A stretch of DNA of 64,000 nucleotides. Source: Nitrospinia bacterium (GTDB taxonomy: Bacteria > Nitrospinota > Nitrospinia > Nitrospinales > JAJDAT01). The stretch lies in assembly GCA_029261715.1 (NCBI GenBank), contig JAJDAT010000030.1:62001-126000 (forward strand), written 5' to 3'. The translations under genes were made by a program, and so were the position numbers. This document shows, piece by piece, positions 201 through 38,305 of the stretch; position 1 is the stretch's first letter; each line of letters begins with the position of its first letter. The notes under the pieces were generated by a model. It was not told where the DNA came from, did not search any database, and was given only the letters and a program-made list of their open reading frames with translations.

Positions 201-1949
201 ATGGCCAAAACTAAAAACAAAAAACCTGCCGATGCCCCTGGAGACAACTTTAAGAAAAGGTTGCTTATAGCCGGTGGACTCTTGTTCGTTTATGGCATCA
301 CTATCCTAGGGAAACTCTTCTATCTTCAAATTCTCCAACATGAAGAGCTTTGGTCTCAGTCCGAAAAACAATATATTCGCAAAGTAAAAACTTCTCGCGA
401 ACGCGGGAAAATCCTTGATCGTAATTTTGTCGATTTAGCCGCAAATGTTGAAGTTGACTCTGTTTATGTCAACCCGAGATCCGTAGCCAATAAACAAAAA
501 ACAGCAAGCGCGCTTTCCCAGATTTTGGGTTTGAGCTATCAGAACGCCCTGAAAAAGGTTTCATCAAAAAAGAAATTTGTTTGGGTTAAACGTAAAAGTT
601 CCCTACAGGAATCAAAACAACTAAAGCGACTATCTTTACCTGGAATAGGTTTTAAAACTGAGATTCAACGATTTTACCCAAAAAGACAATTAGCTGCTGG
701 CACTCTCGGGTTCGTTGGAATGGATAATCAAGGTCTGTCCGGCGTTGAACATTTTCACGATACGCTATTAAAAGGATTGATTTCGCTTAAATCGGAAGAA
801 AAAGACGCGCGAGGAAGATATTTCCGCGGTCCTAAACTAGATAAAATTCAGCCAGATCGCAGTCCCGACCTTGTCTTAACTCTAGATGAAGTTATTCAAT
901 ACTATGTAGAAACTGAATTAGAAAAAGCGGTAAAAAAATACCGAGCTAAAGGCGGGGTAGCCGTCGTTATGGCTCCTAATACCGGAGAGATACTAGCTTT
1001 AGCCAATCTTCCAACTTATAACCCCAATAATTATAGCGTTTCCAATCCAAGCTCTTGGAAGAATATAGCAATCTCTTCCTCATTCGAACCGGGATCAATT
1101 TTCAAACCAATTATTGCCGCTGCAGCTATCGAAACAAAAGTGGCCTCTCCAGAAAAAGTTTTCTTTTGTGAAAATGGTTCTTACCGTATCGGTAAGACTG
1201 AAATCGGTGAAGCCGCTGAACATAAGTTCGGATGGCTAAGTCTAGCTAAGATCATTCAAAAATCCAGCAACATTGGCGTTATCAAAATCTCCGAAGAATT
1301 AGGCCCATCTCGCTATTACGATTACATACGAAAATTTGGTTTCGGCTCTAAGTCCGGCATTGATCTGCCGGGAGAAGCTTCTGGACAATTGCGTCCATTA
1401 GATCAATGGTCGAAACTCTCTGCCGCCTCTATTTCTTTCGGCCATGAAATTGGGGCAACGCCTATTCAGTTGATCTCTGCGATTTCCGCCATCGCGAATG
1501 GAGGCAACTTGATGAAACCCTATATCGCCCAAGCTGTAGTTCAGGATGGAGAAACGGTCAAAGAATTTGAACCTCAATTAATTAGGCGCGTCATATCAGA
1601 AAAAACAAGTCGACAAATGGTGGAAATATTAAAAACCGTAGTCAAAGAAGGAACGGGTAAAAAAGCCGGTTTGCCAGGCTACGAAACTGCAGGCAAGACA
1701 GGTACCGCGCAGAAAATAGATCCGGAAACGCAATCCTATTCGAATTCTGCATACGTTGCTTCTTTCGTGGGATTTGCTCCGGCAGATGCACCGCGTATCG
1801 CAATACTCGTAATGATCGACGAACCTAAGCGAGTTTATTGGGGCGGAGAAATTGCGGCTCCTGCATTTAGAGAAATTGCAAGGCAGGCTCTACGATACTT
1901 AAACGTTCCCTCTAAGGAGGAGCGCGTCGTTTATATAGAACGCGCTTAA
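201..1949 (+). CDS. ftsI: Peptidoglycan D,D-transpeptidase FtsI (PBP3)
   Basis: Septal class B penicillin-binding protein that crosslinks peptidoglycan in the periplasm as partner of FtsW. The 582-residue protein has a basic cytoplasmic tail, one membrane segment at about residues 20-42, a dimerisation/pedestal region, and a transpeptidase domain with all three active-site motifs: SIFK (Ser299, Lys302) after EPG, SSN (355-357) and KTG (499-501). Length is usual for the family and there is no C-terminal PASTA repeat. It starts 4 nt after ftsL and ends 8 nt before murE, so it belongs to one transcription unit. The third position of SxxK is Phe-Lys as in most FtsI; nothing appears damaged. Confidence 0.97.
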   Translation: MAKTKNKKPADAPGDNFKKRLLIAGGLLFVYGITILGKLFYLQILQHEELWSQSEKQYIRKVKTSRERGKILDRNFVDLAANVEVDSVYVNPRSVANKQKTASALSQILGLSYQNALKKVSSKKKFVWVKRKSSLQESKQLKRLSLPGIGFKTEIQRFYPKRQLAAGTLGFVGMDNQGLSGVEHFHDTLLKGLISLKSEEKDARGRYFRGPKLDKIQPDRSPDLVLTLDEVIQYYVETELEKAVKKYRAKGGVAVVMAPNTGEILALANLPTYNPNNYSVSNPSSWKNIAISSSFEPGSIFKPIIAAAAIETKVASPEKVFFCENGSYRIGKTEIGEAAEHKFGWLSLAKIIQKSSNIGVIKISEELGPSRYYDYIRKFGFGSKSGIDLPGEASGQLRPLDQWSKLSAASISFGHEIGATPIQLISAISAIANGGNLMKPYIAQAVVQDGETVKEFEPQLIRRVISEKTSRQMVEILKTVVKEGTGKKAGLPGYETAGKTGTAQKIDPETQSYSNSAYVASFVGFAPADAPRIAILVMIDEPKRVYWGGEIAAPAFREIARQALRYLNVPSKEERVVYIERA

Positions 1950-1957
1950 TTAAAGCT

Positions 1958-3511
1958 GTGATTCAAATTAATCTTATATCGCCGTCAATGAAAAGGCTTA
2001 CTAAATTGAATCCAAATTTCGCAACAACATTGGACAAATTGATAGAAGGTTTTTCTATTATCGACATTAAAGGTCCCAAGTGTCCTACTGTCGAATCAAT
2101 TTGTTACGATTCCAGAAAAGCGACGCCGGACTCTTTATTTGTCGCTATTCGAGGCGCGCAAAGCAACGGAGAGCAATTCATTGGACAAGCTCTATCTAAT
2201 GGGGCAACTGTCATAGTCGCCGAAACCCCTTACTCTCCAGGCCAATTTTCAGATATCGAAAACACAACATACGTTCAAGTTGAAAATTGTCGTGAAACTC
2301 TTTCGTTCATTGCTTCCAAATTTTATAAAGAGCCTTCAAAGAAATTACGGCTTTTTGGAGTTACGGGAACAAATGGTAAAACAACCGTAACCTATCTTTT
2401 AGAATCGATTTTCCAAAGCCAAGAAAAATCGGTTGGAGTTATTGGAACTGTCGATGCGCGTTATTCTGGAAAAGTTCAAGCGTCTTCAATGACTACACCA
2501 GAATCCCTAGATTTGAACAAAGAATTGTCTGAGATGGTTCAAAACGGGGTCGATCATTGTTTCCTTGAAGTTTCTTCCCATGCTTTGGCCTTACAAAGAG
2601 TCGACAACCTTCATTTTGAAACGGTTTTATTTACGAACTTAACTCGCGATCACCTGGATTTCCATCCAACATTTGAAGATTATAAAGAGACTAAAAAAAG
2701 CCTATTTAAAAGATTCCCAAATGCAAAAGCCATAATTAACATTGATGATCCTGTAGGTCTTGAAATCGTAGCTGAAAATCCTTCTTCAGATTTTTTAAAA
2801 ATAGGCCTTAACGACGAAGCTGAAATTCGAGCGACCAACATCCAATTATCGCCAAAAGGAACAAAATGGATATTGGAAACTCCTTGTGGAAACCAAAAAA
2901 TAAATTCAAAACTATTAGGCATTCACAACGTATACAACCAATTAATTGCGGCGTCAGGGGCTTTATCGCAAAAAATTTCGCTTGAAACTATCGCAATAGG
3001 GCTTGAAAAAATTAAAAAAGTTCCAGGACGTTTTGAATCAGTTGAAACAGGACAACCTTTCTCTGTAATCATTGACTACGCCCATACAGAAGACGCGTTA
3101 ACAAATGTTTTGAAAGCGTGTAAATCGGTAACGCAAAAGCGAACCATTTTGGCGTTTGGTTGCGGCGGAGATCGCGATAGAGGAAAACGCCCCAAGATGG
3201 GACGCGCGGCTTTTGAAGGAGCCGATTTTCTAGTTGTTACGTCCGACAATCCTAGAACTGAAAACCCAGACTCAATTATCGATGACATCTGCAAGGGTTT
3301 TCCCAAGACAGCTAACGAGAACGCTGAATTTATTCGGATTTCGGACAGACGTAAGGCGATCCATAGCGCTATTGAAATCGCTCAACCCGGAGACCTGGTG
3401 CTTATTGCGGGCAAAGGCCATGAAGATTATCAAATTCTAAATTCCGGAACTATTTCTTTTGACGACCGCAAGGTTGCAATAGACGCGTTGGCTAAGAGGT
3501 ATCCCAGATGA
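1958..3511 (+). CDS. murE: UDP-MurNAc-tripeptide synthetase MurE (meso-DAP type)
   Basis: Cytoplasmic Mur ligase adding the third stem-peptide residue to UDP-MurNAc-L-Ala-D-Glu. The ATP loop GTNGKTT starts at residue 137, followed by the TTP substrate motif (SSMTTPESLDL), DHLDFH, and DYAHTEDALTNVL in the C-terminal domain. The specificity motif is DNPR (430-433), the form found in meso-diaminopimelate-adding enzymes, so the wall is predicted to be DAP-type. The start is uncertain: GTG at 1958 gives 517 residues, ATG at 1988 gives 507, and neither has a clear ribosome site. The stop overlaps the murF start (ATGA), suggesting translational coupling. Confidence 0.96.
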   Translation: MIQINLISPSMKRLTKLNPNFATTLDKLIEGFSIIDIKGPKCPTVESICYDSRKATPDSLFVAIRGAQSNGEQFIGQALSNGATVIVAETPYSPGQFSDIENTTYVQVENCRETLSFIASKFYKEPSKKLRLFGVTGTNGKTTVTYLLESIFQSQEKSVGVIGTVDARYSGKVQASSMTTPESLDLNKELSEMVQNGVDHCFLEVSSHALALQRVDNLHFETVLFTNLTRDHLDFHPTFEDYKETKKSLFKRFPNAKAIINIDDPVGLEIVAENPSSDFLKIGLNDEAEIRATNIQLSPKGTKWILETPCGNQKINSKLLGIHNVYNQLIAASGALSQKISLETIAIGLEKIKKVPGRFESVETGQPFSVIIDYAHTEDALTNVLKACKSVTQKRTILAFGCGGDRDRGKRPKMGRAAFEGADFLVVTSDNPRTENPDSIIDDICKGFPKTANENAEFIRISDRRKAIHSAIEIAQPGDLVLIAGKGHEDYQILNSGTISFDDRKVAIDALAKRYPR

Positions 3512-4908
3512 TGGAATATTCAGCAATACAAATCCTAGAAGCCGTTTCTGGAAGCTGGATATCCGGAGATCAAAGCAAAACCTTTAACGGTATATCAATT
3601 GATTCTAGAACCGTAAAAAAAGGGCAACTATTTGTCTGCGTATCTGGAGACCGCTTTGATAGTCACGATTTCATTCTTGATGTCATGCAAAAAGAAGTTG
3701 CGGGAATAATTGTAAAATCCAAAGACAAAATCCCTAACAAAAAATCAGCGTCATTTGTCATACAAGTTAACGATACGGTACAGGCTTTACAAAATTTAGC
3801 GGAATTCCATCGCTCCCAATTTGATGTCTCCATACTTGCCATTACTGGAACTAATGGAAAGTCTACTACTAAAGAAATGACCGCTTCCGTTGCCGCAAGC
3901 CAGTTTAATGTCCTTAAAACAGAAGGCAACAAGAACAATCATATTGGACTTCCTCTCACTCTTTTTAACCTCAAAGCGGAACATGAAGTTTCTGTTTTAG
4001 AAATGGGAATGAGCGGTAAAGGAGAAATTAAAAGACTCGCCGAAATAGCTAAACCAAAGGTAGGAATAATTACCAATATTTCCGAAGGTCATCTCGAAAA
4101 CCTACCCACAATAAAGGACGTCCAGGAAGCTAAAGGAGAGTTATTTGAATCTTTAAATCAAGACGGCACCGCAATAGTAAATGCTGACGATCCTTTAGTC
4201 TTGGAACTATCTCGTTCATTGCGCTCCAATATTGTTACTTATGGTTTTAAAAGCTCCGCCGACATTCAAGCAGACAACGTAAAACAAAGAGGAAACGAGG
4301 GGTTTGATTTTACTCTCCATTTTTTTAATGAGAAAACCTCTGTATTCTTGCCATTCCTAGGCTCTTGCAATATTTCAAATGCGTTAGCAGCTATTGCCGC
4401 AGGACATGCCTTAGGGTTGAGCTCTCAAAAAATCTTATCAGGATTGCAAGACTGTCAATTAATGCCTCAACGAATGCAGACTGAAAAAAAAGGCGACATC
4501 ACAATCATTAACGATGCTTATAACGCCAATCCTAGATCCATGGAAGAAGCTCTTAGAACGCTATCCTCATACAAAAATAAGGGGAAAAAAGTTTTTGTGA
4601 TGGGAGATATGCTTGAACTAGGACGTATTTCAGAAAACGCCCATAAAAATTTTGGAAAGCAGTTTTCAGCCAGTTCAGTAAATCTGCTGATCGCGGTCGG
4701 ACCTTTAGCTCAATTAGCTGCACAAACTGCCCTTGATTCTGGACTCGATGAAAATCGAGTTAGAAGCTTTGAAAATAAAGAAGAGGCCATTCTTTTTCTA
4801 TACGAATCTCTCCAAGCTAACGATTGCATGCTAGTCAAAGGCTCTCGGGGAATGCAAATGGAACAAGTCATTGAAGGCATCTCAAAAAAAATGAATTGGC
4901 AAGAATAA
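3508..4908 (+). CDS. murF: UDP-MurNAc-tripeptide--D-Ala-D-Ala ligase MurF
   Basis: Cytoplasmic ATP-dependent ligase that adds the D-Ala-D-Ala dipeptide to complete the UDP-MurNAc-pentapeptide. The N-terminal domain has the SIDSRTV motif that recurs in MurE/MurF. The central domain has GTNGKST (from residue 114), then EGNKNNHIGLP, which is characteristic of MurF, and the C-terminal domain has INDAYNANPRSM. The 466 residues match the family. The start ATG overlaps the murE stop by four bases; a second ATG directly follows at 3511, so the exact initiation codon is one of two adjacent ones. mraY follows after 4 nt. Confidence 0.97.
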   Translation: MMEYSAIQILEAVSGSWISGDQSKTFNGISIDSRTVKKGQLFVCVSGDRFDSHDFILDVMQKEVAGIIVKSKDKIPNKKSASFVIQVNDTVQALQNLAEFHRSQFDVSILAITGTNGKSTTKEMTASVAASQFNVLKTEGNKNNHIGLPLTLFNLKAEHEVSVLEMGMSGKGEIKRLAEIAKPKVGIITNISEGHLENLPTIKDVQEAKGELFESLNQDGTAIVNADDPLVLELSRSLRSNIVTYGFKSSADIQADNVKQRGNEGFDFTLHFFNEKTSVFLPFLGSCNISNALAAIAAGHALGLSSQKILSGLQDCQLMPQRMQTEKKGDITIINDAYNANPRSMEEALRTLSSYKNKGKKVFVMGDMLELGRISENAHKNFGKQFSASSVNLLIAVGPLAQLAAQTALDSGLDENRVRSFENKEEAILFLYESLQANDCMLVKGSRGMQMEQVIEGISKKMNWQE

Positions 4909-33650: not shown

Positions 33651-34796
33651 ATGGTCGTAAAAAAATGTACAACTTGTAAAAATATAGTAATAGTCCCTTC
33701 TATAACTCTTCTTTGTCCTCTTCCTCTTTGCTACGGCATCTTGGAGCAAATTTACCCAATAGTTTGGAGTCCTGATATTCCGCTTTCTACCAGCTTATCC
33801 GTTATTCCACCATTTAGAGGTTCTTCAATGGGGTTGTGGAGACACTTTCCAAGTCTATCGGCCACTAACGTTATTCAATCGCTCATGTTTTCAAGATTAA
33901 AGGCTATATTAGATATAAAAGAAGAATACTCCGTCGAACTTTATACAGGACATAACCGGGGGCGTAGATTAGTCATGGAAAGGACACTACCAACCGAGCG
34001 TTTGGGTTGCGACTTAACCATGCAACCTTACGAATGGTGTTTTTCTAAAACTAAAAACTATTTTGAAGGTTCTACCCGTTTGATAATGAATCCAGGGACG
34101 AACCAAAGCCTTTTTAACGTTATGATGGCTGCTCGTCTGGAGTTTTCGCAACCAAGCTTTTTTCATTCCAGGATTAGCGGAAACATGGATTTAGCCGTAA
34201 ACTCAACATTAGATCCCACCCTATATTTAAAAGACCATCCACATTTAGCCAAACTTGCCCCAAAATTCAGAGGGCTCATAAGAGTTCAAGGCATTACTTA
34301 TGTCGCCGATCTTGATTATCCCCTATCCTTAGGGTTAGATAATTGGACTTTAAGACATCCTATTTCATCCGTTAGAGTTAAAGTAACACCCAAAATAGGC
34401 TTGTCTGTACGCGCGAATAAAGTTCAATGCGGCCCTGTGACTCTCCGAGATCCCTATATTGAATCATCAATCAATATTTTTGCATTTGACTCAAGCGACA
34501 CAAAATTCGGCGGCAATATATCGGGGAGAGGAGGACATGGTGATTTAGAACTCGCTTTGCCCAAACCTAAACCAAGAGACTTAAGAGTTGTACGAATGGT
34601 AAAAAACGTTTTACCTAAAAAAGTTCGCCTTCTGAAGGCAAATACCTATGATTATAATTTTAATTTCAGTTTTGATCGGAGCGGCGGGCTGAGTCTTCAA
34701 AATCAGTCGCCATCGCCATCGCCTTCACCACACCGATTGAAACATTTAGCGGAAATGCAACCTGGAGGAATGTACGACACTTCTAATTTTTCTTAA
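33651..34796 (+). CDS. Hypothetical protein with hydrophobic N-terminus and SP-repeat tail
   Basis: A 381-residue protein I do not recognise. It has a hydrophobic stretch near the N-terminus (IVIVPSITLLCPLPLC) that could be a membrane anchor or signal, two early CxxC cysteines (CTTCK), a long beta-rich body with repeated acidic/aromatic strands, and a short SPSPSPSP stretch followed by a polar tail. The layout is faintly reminiscent of GspN/AsmA-type periplasmic proteins, but no motif confirms this. AGAAGG upstream of the ATG supports the start. It stands alone, flanked by very AT-rich DNA. Confidence 0.6.
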   Translation: MVVKKCTTCKNIVIVPSITLLCPLPLCYGILEQIYPIVWSPDIPLSTSLSVIPPFRGSSMGLWRHFPSLSATNVIQSLMFSRLKAILDIKEEYSVELYTGHNRGRRLVMERTLPTERLGCDLTMQPYEWCFSKTKNYFEGSTRLIMNPGTNQSLFNVMMAARLEFSQPSFFHSRISGNMDLAVNSTLDPTLYLKDHPHLAKLAPKFRGLIRVQGITYVADLDYPLSLGLDNWTLRHPISSVRVKVTPKIGLSVRANKVQCGPVTLRDPYIESSINIFAFDSSDTKFGGNISGRGGHGDLELALPKPKPRDLRVVRMVKNVLPKKVRLLKANTYDYNFNFSFDRSGGLSLQNQSPSPSPSPHRLKHLAEMQPGGMYDTSNFS

Positions 34797-34843: not shown

Positions 34844-37800
34844 TTAAGTCTTTTTCGGAAAGTGTTTGGCTAAAACTTCTTTAATTTCATCGGGTTTGTA
34901 GAAATGTTCGACGAGTTCGTCGGCCTTGTAGGATTTGAAACCGACTTCCTCCGTATAGCGGAGGTGGCGCAACCCTTCGGCGTTAGCGTCAAACCGACCA
35001 TCCGGTAATAAGACTAACCAACCATTGGCGTCAAAAGAATAAAAAGAAGCAATGGTCTGGTAACTCTTTAAATCCCAAATCTGAATTCTCCCAGCGTACC
35101 CCCCGACGATTAAAATATCTGAATTGGGAATAAAAGACACTGACCGGGCTGAACCTAAATGTCCTTCCAGCGTTTTAAGACATCGCCCCGATTCCGCCTC
35201 CCACACCCGCACGGTTTTGTCATAAGAACCGCTCGCGATTTGACCGTCATGAAAAGCCACAGAATATACCCCGCCGGAATGTCCCTCCAGCGTTTTAAGA
35301 CATCGCCCCGATTCCGCCTCCCACACCCGCACGGTGTTGTCATAAGAACCGCTCGCGATTTGACCGTCATGAAAAGCCACAGAAGATACCCCGCCGGAAT
35401 GTCCCTCCAGCGTTTTAAGACATCGCCCCGATTCCGCCTCCCACACCCGCACGGTTTTGTCATAAGAACCGCTCGCGATTTGACCGTCATGAAAAGCCAC
35501 AGAATATACCCAGCCGGAATGTCCCTCCAGCGTTTTAAGACATCGCCCCGATTCCGCCTCCCACACCCGCACGGTTTTGTCATCAGAACCGCTCGCGATT
35601 TGACCGTCATGAAAAGCCACAGAATATACCCAGCCGGAATGTCCCTCTAATTCTCTCAATAGAACGCCGTCGTCCTTCCGCCATACTCTAATAACTCCAT
35701 CTCGCCCGCCAGTAACAATATAAGCGCCATCGGGGCTAAAAACGACTGACTCCACTCCATTCGCATGTCCACGTTGAACAATGGGAGCCAGATTGATAGC
35801 GTTATCAATCGTTCCCGCCTCTCTGGAGGTAAATCCAGCAAGCCCTCGACTCTCCTGAGTTTTTGCCGAATCCAGATCCACTCCTTCCAAATTACAATCC
35901 TCAAAAACACTGCCAATTAAATCTGCTTCTTGAAATTTAGCATCCGAAAAATCCGCTTTATCAAAATAAGCGTACCGAAAATTCAACCCTTGTAATTGCG
36001 CGTTCTGCAATTGCATCTCTTTTGGGAGAGTATTTTTTAACTCATTTAATAACTCATCAGGTCGATCAATCTCGCGCTCCATTCCTAATCGATGACGAAC
36101 TGTCCAATACAAAACCTGCAATGCGTTTTCGGAAACATTCGAAAGGTAACCATCCTGCAATCGTTTTTGTAACAAACCAGTCAATTCGTCGTTTGCATCA
36201 ATTTGCGATAAGAAAAAAATCACTTTAGGGTTCAAAATTGGTAGATCAAGAACTTTCAAAGGATTTTTTGGATATTCACTTTCTTGAATATCTCGAAAGA
36301 TTTTTCTCGCTAAAAAATATTCACTAAACGATTTATGAATGAACGAAAAGTTTCCTTCGTCATCGCGATTTAAAAACGAAGCCGCCTGCATGTCTCCGGC
36401 AACGTCATCAGGTTTTTCCGGTCCCACACGAATCTTTTTTTCGGAAAGTAGCTCATTTATAAAAGAAATGGTTTCTTTGTAATGGATCGAATCAGTCTCT
36501 TCCGTCCAGAATTTCAAAGCGAGGTGCAACATCAACTCCAACCGGACATCCTTTTCCAACATACGTTCGTTTTCTTTTTCCCTTTGCACCCAAATGTCGG
36601 TGAATATTTTGTACAACCCGGCGGCATTCAGATTTTTTTCTTTTAAGGAATTCTCTCGCAATAACTTTGCAATCATCTCTAACAACAATGGTTGTGTAGA
36701 TAATTGTTCCAAATTATATATACCCTTGATCGTTTGCCAATCTTCCTGGCAAGAACCTGTTCCCGCCTTTTCCAAGTAATCCAGAATTTCCTTTTCATCA
36801 AACTTCTGCAAGTAAACCGCATTAGCGCCGGAAATTTTCCGCAAGCGTTCATAGAGAACCGTTTCTGTTTCCGCAAGAATAGAACTCTTTCCCGTTAACA
36901 AAGCCTCTTCATCGCTATTTTTGAAATAATGCGAACGACATGTTAAAACGCTTTTCCATCCGTTAAAAGCCGCCTGCGAAAGTTCGCTAAAATTGGAACA
37001 AGACACTTCCCAACGCACTCGGTCGGCCATTTCGTCGAACGCGTCGAAAAAAACTACTACTTTTCCAAGTTTCGCTAGTAAATTGAACCCCTCAAAATCA
37101 AACTTTTTGAATCCCTGGCTTTCGAAATGCGCGTCGACTACACTTTTTAGCGTAATAGCCTTTTTAATAACTTTGAGCGGGATATGAATTGGCGCGGGAT
37201 GTCTTACTGGATCTTCCAAAAAACTTTTCGCCATGTGGTATGACAAAAACCGAGTCAACGTTGTCTTCCCAGTGCCTAAATCTCCAAGTAACGTTAAAAG
37301 CTTACCTTCAGAGTTACCCAGCCATTTTGAAAAATGCTCAAGCGCTGGAACATTTTCAGAACCTCCCTCCAGTTTAATTTTGGGTCTCACATAGCAATCT
37401 TTACCACTCCATTGATCGACCATGAATTTTTCAAAATTGAATTTCAATCGTTCGGAATATTTTTCTAAAGGGGCTAACGTTTGTAAAAGATTGGCATAAT
37501 GTATGCTGTTGATATCGTTTTCCCTCAACCGCTCCAAAGCATTTTCATCACATCCCTGTCTGTATAATAAAGTCCACTGGCTTCGCGCATTTCTCGCAAG
37601 AATTTCCGCTTTTTTCTCTAAAAACCGTTCGACATCTTTCAAAGTAACCCAGTCTTCCTGGCAAATAACCATTCCTTTAAATTCAAAACCAGGTTCTGTT
37701 CTCTCAATCTCTATACATTGAAATCCAACATCAGAAAATATAGCCTCCAGTTGAAAGCCTTTAGCTTCATAATAAGCCAAAGCTTCGTTTAGAAAGTACC

Positions 37801-38305
37801 GATCACTTGTACTCTTCTTTTCATTTTGAAAAAGCCTTCTGGTAATAGAGTCACTAAACTGATCGCTTTCGACCTTAAAGTTTTCTCGCTTTTGAGTTGG
37901 AAGATCTAAAGCTTCTATCAACTTTCTCAAATTAAAATGAAAATCCACCTCTTTTGTAAAGTCGATGCGGCTTAAAGCATCGAATAACGGGAGTAATTCA
38001 CACTCTTCTTTGAGTAAGGGAATGAGAGAACGTTCACGGCTTAAAGAGTCGGAATGGAGGCTGGCAAAGCTTTCGGCTTGCGCAAAATCTTTAGTTAAAT
38101 AAATAGGTGAAAAAACTACCGCCATTTTTCTCGAAAGCTTGATTCCTTCGTTGATCTTTTTTTGAACGTTATCTCCAGGCGGAATTCTCCAGTCGTCGAA
38201 CCAAACTTTAACGCCATTGTCGCGCAAAGAATCCGCTAGTTTGGTTGCAAAACCTTTATCTTCACTGGCGTAACTTATGAATACATCGTATTGGTAGTTT
38301 CGCAT
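34844..38305 (-). CDS. TIR-NACHT-pentapeptide-WD40 NLR-like protein
   Basis: A 1153-residue multi-domain protein. Residues 1-~135 are a TIR domain (YDVFISYASEDKGFATKLAD, with Glu78 at the position of the TIR NADase glutamate). An unassigned helical/alpha-beta region follows (about 170-290, perhaps nuclease-like). A NACHT/STAND ATPase has Walker A GDLGTGKTT (341-349) and Walker B VVVFFDAFDEM (416-426), then a helical arm. Pentapeptide-like repeats lie at ~763-812, six WD40 units at ~849-1090, and a C-terminal DGRFDANAEGLRHL segment also found in bacterial caspase/WD40 proteins. This is the architecture of bacterial NLR-type defence proteins: ligand sensing by WD40, oligomerisation by NACHT, NAD cleavage by TIR. 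No phage-defence neighbours are present. Confidence 0.9.
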   Translation of the reverse strand: MRNYQYDVFISYASEDKGFATKLADSLRDNGVKVWFDDWRIPPGDNVQKKINEGIKLSRKMAVVFSPIYLTKDFAQAESFASLHSDSLSRERSLIPLLKEECELLPLFDALSRIDFTKEVDFHFNLRKLIEALDLPTQKRENFKVESDQFSDSITRRLFQNEKKSTSDRYFLNEALAYYEAKGFQLEAIFSDVGFQCIEIERTEPGFEFKGMVICQEDWVTLKDVERFLEKKAEILARNARSQWTLLYRQGCDENALERLRENDINSIHYANLLQTLAPLEKYSERLKFNFEKFMVDQWSGKDCYVRPKIKLEGGSENVPALEHFSKWLGNSEGKLLTLLGDLGTGKTTLTRFLSYHMAKSFLEDPVRHPAPIHIPLKVIKKAITLKSVVDAHFESQGFKKFDFEGFNLLAKLGKVVVFFDAFDEMADRVRWEVSCSNFSELSQAAFNGWKSVLTCRSHYFKNSDEEALLTGKSSILAETETVLYERLRKISGANAVYLQKFDEKEILDYLEKAGTGSCQEDWQTIKGIYNLEQLSTQPLLLEMIAKLLRENSLKEKNLNAAGLYKIFTDIWVQREKENERMLEKDVRLELMLHLALKFWTEETDSIHYKETISFINELLSEKKIRVGPEKPDDVAGDMQAASFLNRDDEGNFSFIHKSFSEYFLARKIFRDIQESEYPKNPLKVLDLPILNPKVIFFLSQIDANDELTGLLQKRLQDGYLSNVSENALQVLYWTVRHRLGMEREIDRPDELLNELKNTLPKEMQLQNAQLQGLNFRYAYFDKADFSDAKFQEADLIGSVFEDCNLEGVDLDSAKTQESRGLAGFTSREAGTIDNAINLAPIVQRGHANGVESVVFSPDGAYIVTGGRDGVIRVWRKDDGVLLRELEGHSGWVYSVAFHDGQIASGSDDKTVRVWEAESGRCLKTLEGHSGWVYSVAFHDGQIASGSYDKTVRVWEAESGRCLKTLEGHSGGVSSVAFHDGQIASGSYDNTVRVWEAESGRCLKTLEGHSGGVYSVAFHDGQIASGSYDKTVRVWEAESGRCLKTLEGHLGSARSVSFIPNSDILIVGGYAGRIQIWDLKSYQTIASFYSFDANGWLVLLPDGRFDANAEGLRHLRYTEEVGFKSYKADELVEHFYKPDEIKEVLAKHFPKKT
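35161..35640 (-). repeat. Four 120-bp near-identical WD40 repeats
   Basis: Four head-to-tail copies (35161-35280, 35281-35400, 35401-35520, 35521-35640) differ at only five alignment positions: 35165, 35272/35392 versus 35512/35632, 35336, 35385 and 35584. Each encodes one 40-residue WD40 unit (EGHS...VRVWEAESGRCLKTL). Such identity at DNA level means recent expansion or gene conversion. Four of the five differences change the amino acid, at repeat residues 6, 8, 22 and 24. The length of 120 bp keeps all three frames open, which produces long spurious ORFs on both strands. Confidence 0.97.

What the first reader, a model, noticed from the sequence alone, without database searches (positions are those of the whole stretch)
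34844..38305. Bacterial NLR-like protein: TIR + NACHT + pentapeptide + WD40
The 1153-residue protein combines an N-terminal TIR effector, a NACHT ATPase with intact Walker motifs, pentapeptide repeats and a WD40 sensor. TIR effectors of bacterial defence cleave NAD, and NACHT modules oligomerise on ligand binding. This single-gene layout fits a stand-alone immune receptor; the pentapeptide insert between NACHT and WD40 is unusual.
Basis: partly seen in the sequence, partly recalled or inferred. Interest (0 to 1): 0.82.

Follow-up and report, generated by a model that had tools for sequence, protein, structure and literature searches.

The report
Bacterial immune receptor, fungal-style repeat sensor
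This bacterial gene looks like a self-contained immune receptor whose sensor is built of almost identical repeats that differ only at the four spots where a fungal self/non-self recognition protein is known to diversify, and it carries a dead DNA-cutting domain that is still intact in its relatives.

Summary
The reported protein is real: 1153 aa on the minus strand, with a TIR domain (Glu78 present), a NACHT-like STAND NTPase with intact Walker motifs, pentapeptide repeats and WD40 repeats. (1) The unassigned stretch between TIR and NACHT is a PD-(D/E)xK restriction-endonuclease fold. Distant relatives keep its D...E-x-K active site; both copies in this genome have lost it and the domain has become their least conserved part apart from the short pentapeptide stretch, so TIR is the only effector left intact. 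One relative shows the reverse: intact nuclease, degraded TIR. (2) The WD40 sensor holds four 120-bp repeats, 97.8% identical on average. [quoted passage not shown] Four related arrays concentrate variation at the same sites. Best reading: a stand-alone bacterial NLR that senses a ligand by its WD40 propeller, oligomerises and depletes NAD+, its sensor renewed by repeat homogenisation plus point diversification. Function, ligand and strain variation are untested; dN/dS at the sites exceeds 1 in only three of five arrays; short-read assembly may have miscounted the array. New variant of a known kind.

The parts
34844..38305 (-). Gene for the 1153-aa TIR / inactive REase / NACHT-like / pentapeptide / WD40 protein
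37919..38284 (-). TIR domain (residues 8-129); Glu78 at 38072-38074
   Evidence: Pfam TIR_2; Glu78 invariant in 6 of 6; nearest solved sequences are bacterial TIR proteins incl. NAD hydrolase AbTIR
37451..37804 (-). Degenerate PD-(D/E)xK (Mrr-like) nuclease fold (residues ~168-285); the E-x-K position reads I-C-Q at 37658-37666 (residues 214-216)
   Evidence: alignment, Pfam Mrr_cat in four relatives, model and fold match, catalytic columns
36041..37378 (-). NACHT-like STAND NTPase module and helical part (residues 310-755); Walker A 37262-37285, Walker B 37031-37051
35852..36016 (-). Pentapeptide repeats (residues 764-818)
35045..35770 (-). WD40 repeats, six blades (residues 846-1087)
35158..35647 (-). 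Array of four near-identical 120-bp WD40 repeats; amino-acid differences only at repeat residues 5, 7, 21 and 23
34847..35044 (-). C-terminal tail WLxLLPDGRFDA... (residues 1088-1153), also seen at the end of the relatives whose C-terminus is held
   Evidence: sequences

Best explanation
A single-gene bacterial NLR-type immune receptor. The WD40 propeller holds the protein off; binding of an invader protein (or a host protein altered by it) to the top face of the propeller lets the NACHT-like NTPase exchange nucleotide and oligomerise; this clusters the N-terminal TIR domains, which cleave NAD+ and stop growth or kill the cell. The nuclease-fold domain next to the TIR is a former second effector, kept as a structural or nucleic-acid-binding part in this genome. 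The sensor is renewed by copying WD40 units within the gene while the four top-face codons of each unit diversify, as in fungal HET-D/HET-E. Shown: domains, motifs, loss of the nuclease active site, near identity of repeats, place of the differences. Inferred: activation steps, NADase activity, ligand, defence, and that selection rather than drift placed the differences.
For: TIR with the Glu78 column invariant in 6 of 6 aligned members and bacterial TIR NADases among the nearest solved sequences; Walker A and B columns invariant in 6 of 6; NACHT found in 5 of 6 members. Window repeats: 4 of 4 amino-acid-changing codons fall on sites 12, 14, 30, 32; the one further change is silent. These are the x-V-x and x-D-x pairs that Paoletti 2007 (PMC1805685, passages) lists as codons 7, 9, 25, 27. 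Four positions drawn at random did as well in 1 of 100,000 draws for the window, and 82, 8, 201 and 6 of 100,000 for the paralogue, L014, L016 and L033. dN/dS at the seven HET-E sites against the rest: window 13 pairwise replacement and 0 silent differences against none; paralogue 1.37 v 0.33; L014 1.28 v 0.37. Patchy spread: 1 of 77 genomes of its phylum, 4 of 162, 1 of 40, 1 of 397.
Against: No functional data exist for any member found here. dN/dS at the sites is below 1 in L016 (0.65) and L033 (0.66), though above the rest (0.16, 0.23). Ordinary WD40 proteins of the same genome are also more variable at these sites, less sharply (1.5- and 1.4-fold; 3820 and 6062 of 100,000; four repeats each). 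Only four replacement changes exist in the window array. The ten neighbouring proteins scanned are a methyltransferase, sulfatase, HD protein, MacB-like exporter parts and the like, not defence genes. The full-length model is weak (mean pLDDT 66).
Confidence: 0.6

Rival explanations
1. Self/non-self recognition between neighbouring bacterial cells (allorecognition), the role HET-D/HET-E have in fungi, rather than phage defence: the WD40 face reads a variable protein of a kin cell.
For: Same NACHT-WD40 layout, same homogenised repeats and same variable codons as the fungal incompatibility genes; two copies in one genome with different arrays.
Against: No delivery route or partner gene seen; fungal genes act after cell fusion, which bacteria lack. 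The same sensor evolution fits phage defence equally well.
Confidence: 0.12
2. A STAND-type regulator of development, stress or transcription with no immune role.
For: Chromosomal setting among metabolic and envelope genes; many bacterial STAND and WD40 proteins are uncharacterised (general knowledge).
Against: TIR and nuclease effectors, patchy spread and changes focused on the binding face are unlike a housekeeping regulator.
Confidence: 0.13
3. The repeat pattern is neutral: WD40 arrays grow from single blades and the loops that vary are simply the least constrained.
For: Hu 2017 (PMC5587647, section 11) and the propeller papers listed describe recent repeat duplication and variable hot-spot sites generally; two ordinary WD40 proteins here show a weak form; dN/dS is below 1 in two arrays.
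Against: dN/dS above 1 at the sites in window, paralogue and L014; other loop positions stay invariant in the window array.
Confidence: 0.3
4. A degraded gene: with the nuclease dead, the rest is on its way to loss.
For: Nuclease active site lost in both copies.
Against: Frame fully open; TIR and NTPase motifs intact; the NTPase is 61% identical between the two copies.
Confidence: 0.04

Closest known systems
Fungal HNWD NLRs (HET-D, HET-E, HET-R of Podospora anserina)
   Same: NACHT-WD40 layout with an N-terminal effector; near-identical WD40 repeats; differences at the codons reported under diversifying selection.
   Different: Bacterial; TIR_2 plus nuclease fold instead of HET; pentapeptide stretch; strain variation and recognition not shown; most arrays other than the window's are less homogeneous.
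bNACHT25/bNACHT32 (bacterial NACHT anti-phage proteins with a PD-(D/E)XK DNase; PMC12169576, passages)
   Same: Nuclease-fold domain upstream of NACHT, single gene.
   Different: Here a TIR precedes it, the nuclease is dead in this genome, and the sensor is WD40 rather than the NCH1 helical domain.
Pfam NA-iREase1 (NACHT-associated inactive restriction endonuclease 1, PF22722)
   Same: Inactive nuclease fold beside NACHT; weak match to relative L016 (E 0.0038).
   Different: The window segment itself matches no Pfam family, and the relatives here are active-type.
Metazoan NWD1/NWD2/TEP1 (TIR-like DUF4062-NACHT-WD40; PMC13174449, passages) and APAF-1
   Same: Effector-NACHT-WD40 order with a TIR-like NADase in the effector place.
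   Different: Different TIR-like family; no nuclease fold or pentapeptide stretch is described in the passages read.
Highly-Repetitive prokaryotic WD40 proteins (Hu 2017, PMC5587647)
   Same: High internal identity with diverse hot-spot residues.
   Different: That paper has no mention of NACHT or TIR in the term search.

Membership tests
Bacterial NLR / NACHT STAND proteins (bNACHT-like) | P-loop NTPase with Walker A and D-x-x-D-E type Walker B | tested here: met
   GDLGTGKT at 341 and FFDAFDE at 419, columns invariant in 6 of 6
Bacterial NLR / NACHT STAND proteins (bNACHT-like) | Match to the Pfam NACHT model above its cut-off | tested here: inconclusive
   Window 17.6 bits against cut-off 26.7; 5 of 6 members match at E<=0.01, best 4e-8
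Bacterial NLR / NACHT STAND proteins (bNACHT-like) | N-terminal effector and C-terminal repeat sensor | tested here: met
Bacterial NLR / NACHT STAND proteins (bNACHT-like) | Protection against phage | not testable with these tools
   needs an experiment
TIR-domain NADases | TIR fold family with catalytic Glu | tested here: met
   TIR_2 E 2.3e-28; Glu78 conserved; AbTIR E 2e-13. That this Glu is catalytic is recalled from the family.
TIR-domain NADases | NAD+ hydrolysis | not testable with these tools
   needs an assay
PD-(D/E)xK restriction endonucleases (Mrr-like) | alpha-beta-beta-beta-alpha-beta core fold | tested here: met
   model; VIA-align Z 12.4 to 1y88 (rmsd 2.5, 106 aligned) and 11.7 to EndoMS 5gkj (rmsd 2.3, 101 aligned); MspJI best in Foldseek, E 1.8e-4
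PD-(D/E)xK restriction endonucleases (Mrr-like) | Catalytic D and E-x-K | tested here: not met
   Window gap/I/Q and paralogue A/V/F where four relatives have D/E/K
HNWD-type NLRs with high internal conservation | Repeats over 85% identical over at least 100 aa (definition in PMC4986451, passages) | tested here: met
   Four 40-aa repeats, mean 94.6% aa identity, minimum 90%. Not met by the other arrays: means 75, 71, 67, 64%
HNWD-type NLRs with high internal conservation | Diversification at the codons flanking the conserved V and D | tested here: inconclusive
   Positions match 4 of 4 but dN/dS is above 1 in three of five arrays only and changes are few
HNWD-type NLRs with high internal conservation | Repeat number and sequence differ between strains | not testable with these tools
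   The window's genome is the only one of its family searched, and no second strain is held
HNWD-type NLRs with high internal conservation | N-terminal HET domain | tested here: not met
   The N-terminus is TIR_2
A catalogued defence system (PADLOC 2023) | Match over most of the protein to one model | tested here: not met
   Of 19 models matched, nearly all touch only the TIR, the P-loop or the WD40 part

The most novel reading that the evidence does not exclude
Bacteria hold NLRs whose WD40 sensor evolves by the same engine as the fungal incompatibility genes (homogenisation of near-identical repeats plus diversifying selection at the same four codons per blade), within a family that carries two effectors, TIR and restriction nuclease, of which either one may be lost in a given lineage.
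Probability: 0.4. Interest if true: 0.8.

Novelty: new variant of a known kind. Interest (0 to 1): 0.6.

Why it matters
What bacterial NLRs with repeat sensors recognise, and how such sensors keep up with changing targets, is largely open. A bacterial receptor with a fungal-style self-renewing WD40 sensor could be read like a fingerprint: the four residues per blade name the binding face, so ligand screens and sensor swaps become direct tests. The paired TIR and nuclease effectors, with loss of one or the other, offer a natural experiment on whether a receptor needs one killing activity or two.

Tried and rejected
Diversity-generating retroelement: the one reverse transcriptase found in the genome (PF00078) matches the retron type RT-Toprim I-C and lies on another contig, and the changes inside the array are T/G, A/C, G/T and A/C on the coding strand; so a DGR is not supported. 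Mobile copies: no match among 72,556 plasmid records or 50,697 phage records; 169 pattern hits in viral contigs, none confirmed. Antisense ORFs across the array (35159-35650 + and 35155-35610 -) are taken as by-products of a 120-bp period and not as genes; this was not tested further. No RNA family and no tRNA in the window. Overall test of dN/dS above 1 with codon models was not run; the Nei-Gojobori sums pool non-independent pairs of repeats. The full-length model was searched but its matches are almost all WD40 propellers, so it says little of the rest. Paper searches for an earlier report of this architecture or of diversifying WD40 sensors in bacterial NLRs gave none in the listings read; subscription papers are not held, so this is not proof of absence.

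Rows dropped before counts: the repeats at 846 and 1048 of the window protein (not part of the near-identical array); one of 12 repeats of L033 (longer loop); repeats of the paralogue not matched by the pattern, with the five found in L003 and two in L002 pooled as one array although they lie on two contigs. L017 was left out of the nuclease tally (sequence gap and a duplicated stretch).
Full report
Observation. The window holds one open frame of 1153 codons at 34844-38305 on the minus strand. From the N-terminus it has a TIR domain (8-129), a stretch with no Pfam match (about 140-315), a NACHT-like NTPase (Walker A at 341, Walker B at 419), pentapeptide repeats (764-818), WD40 repeats (846-1087) and a short tail. 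NACHT is below the Pfam cut-off in this protein but is found in 5 of 6 aligned members.

The hidden domain. A genome scan found six distant relatives, in Blastocatellia (two), Acidobacteria, Calditrichaceae, Phycisphaerae and a pseudomonadotal MAG, 36-43% identical. In four of them the same stretch matches the Mrr-type restriction endonuclease model above its cut-off (E 4.6e-9 to 5.9e-7) and carries D and E-x-K. A fifth relative, L033, from the class of L014's genome, and the fragment L019 carry them too. In the window protein and in the second copy of this genome they are gone (gap/I/Q and A/V/F): 6 of 8 informative members are intact and both copies here are not. A model of the window stretch alone (mean pLDDT 69, best in the core) has the helix-three strands-helix-strand-helix-strand order of PD-(D/E)xK nucleases, and matches 1y88 (Z 12.4, rmsd 2.5, 106 aligned) and EndoMS (Z 11.7, rmsd 2.3, 101 aligned); Foldseek puts MspJI first (E 1.8e-4).

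Relaxed constraint. In the six pairs among the four relatives with an intact nuclease, that domain is 51-76% identical. In five of the six pairs it is more conserved than both TIR and NTPase; in the closest pair, L014-L015, it is 76% against 77% and 82%. Between the two copies of this genome it is 31%, against 53% for TIR and 61% for the NTPase; only the 55-residue pentapeptide stretch (38%) is near it. So the nuclease has been set free and the TIR is the remaining intact effector. L033 shows the opposite: nuclease intact, but the TIR-like stretch lacks eight residues and has Ala where Glu78 aligns. One case each way is a hint, not a rule.

The sensor. Four 120-bp units at 35158-35647 are 98% matching by tandem-repeat search; pairwise DNA identity is 96.7-99.2% and protein identity 90-97.5%. 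Five codons vary. Four change the residue (W/G, Y/S, D/Y, K/N at repeat residues 5, 7, 21, 23) and one, at residue 40, is silent. The four flank the conserved Val and Asp of the unit. Paoletti 2007 (PMC1805685, passages) reports that in the Podospora NWD genes exactly four codons, 7, 9, 25 and 27, flanking conserved 8 and 26, are under strong positive selection and lie on the top face, in the loop from strand d to a and the turn from b to c. A later paper numbers the high-dN/dS sites 10, 11, 12, 14, 30, 32 and 39 (PMC12222747, passages). The register 12/14/30/32 = 7/9/25/27 is my alignment by these landmarks; the fungal sequence itself was not fetched. Under a uniform draw, four of four falling in the seven sites has chance 3.8e-4; falling on exactly these four, 1 of 100,000 draws.

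Related arrays. The same four sites are more variable than four random positions in the paralogue (82 of 100,000 draws do as well), L014 (8), L016 (201) and L033 (6). dN/dS at the seven sites against the rest is 1.37 v 0.33 (paralogue), 1.28 v 0.37 (L014), 0.65 v 0.16 (L016) and 0.66 v 0.23 (L033); the window has 13 replacement and no silent pairwise differences at the sites and none elsewhere in the 37 codons used. Controls from the same genome: a WD40-GTPase-TIR protein (L037) and a cytochrome-like WD40 protein (L038), four repeats each, show 1.5- and 1.4-fold excess (3820 and 6062 of 100,000); a third protein with 12 repeats (L036), itself repeat-rich, shows 2.8-fold (104 of 100,000). So part of the signal is general to WD40 surfaces, as Hu 2017 noted for hot-spot sites (PMC5587647, section 11), and part is stronger here. 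Repeats are more alike within a gene (DNA 0.978 window, 0.835 paralogue) than between the two genes (0.724), which fits homogenisation within each gene or recent separate amplification.

The second copy. Contig C51 begins and contig C30 ends inside a WD40 array (L002, L003); the ends share 28 bases, and L002 supplies the TIR-to-WD40 half, 51% identical to the window protein over its N-terminal 830 residues, and L003 the WD40-to-tail half, 66%. They are probably one gene about 85 kb from the window gene on the same stretch. Relatives L015 and L018 also stop at a contig end in or at the start of the WD40 part. Short-read data cannot rebuild such arrays in Podospora (PMC12222747, abstract passage), so the number of repeats in the window must be treated as uncertain; collapse would hide variation rather than create it.

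Setting and spread. The ten neighbours scanned are a methyltransferase, a DJ-1/PfpI protein, a molybdopterin oxidoreductase, a sulfatase, an HD protein, one with no match, MacB-like permease, ABC ATPase, membrane-fusion protein and a YhdP-like protein: no defence island. The family is rare and scattered: only this genome of 77 in its phylum, 4 of 162 in the class of L014's genome, 1 of 40 and 1 of 397, a sample of a larger group. These searches score only part of the candidates per genome, and the scan depends on short conserved words, so the counts are lower bounds.

Mechanism and comparison. By analogy with bacterial NACHT proteins (tripartite plan, PMC12169576, passages) and the effector-NACHT-WD40 plan of TEP1/NWD1 and APAF-1 (PMC13174449, passages), the likeliest course is ligand binding at the propeller face, NTPase-driven assembly and TIR activation with NAD+ loss. 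None of this was measured. It works like an NLR; it is a member of the NACHT STAND group by motifs; it is not a member of the active restriction endonucleases; it shares the sensor pattern of HNWD proteins but not their HET domain, and strain variation could not be tested. The novelty lies in the combination: a TIR plus nuclease double effector with one part lost, and a bacterial sensor varying at the fungal sites.

Noticed in passing
L036 (G000:C25:404000-409500), frame 429-3677: Another protein of the same genome with repeat-rich WD40 units (12 matched the pattern) behind an N-terminal stretch without a PADLOC match; its variable sites also favour the top face.
   Followed up: partly
L037 (G000:C18:1-4000), frame 288-3413: WD40 repeats, a GTPase-like middle and a C-terminal TIR/SEFIR-like domain (bSEFIR model E 6.4e-21).
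   Followed up: partly
L040 (G000:C20, match 85941-86561): A retron-type reverse transcriptase with Toprim, RT-Toprim I-C (E 2e-214), 577-codon open frame.
   Followed up: partly
G000: C1, C52, C15, C5: Four further TIR-containing frames of 332-380 codons match the TIR part, so this genome is rich in TIR proteins.
   Followed up: no
window 35000-35999: The WD40 array is 49% G+C while the rest of the gene is about 39%, as if the repeat unit came from elsewhere or is shaped by conversion.
   Followed up: no
L033, N-terminal ~200 residues: The relative with the degraded TIR carries about 200 extra residues before the TIR-like stretch; not identified.
   Followed up: no
window 33651-34796 +: A 381-aa frame next to the gene matches no Pfam family at 1e-5.
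   Followed up: no
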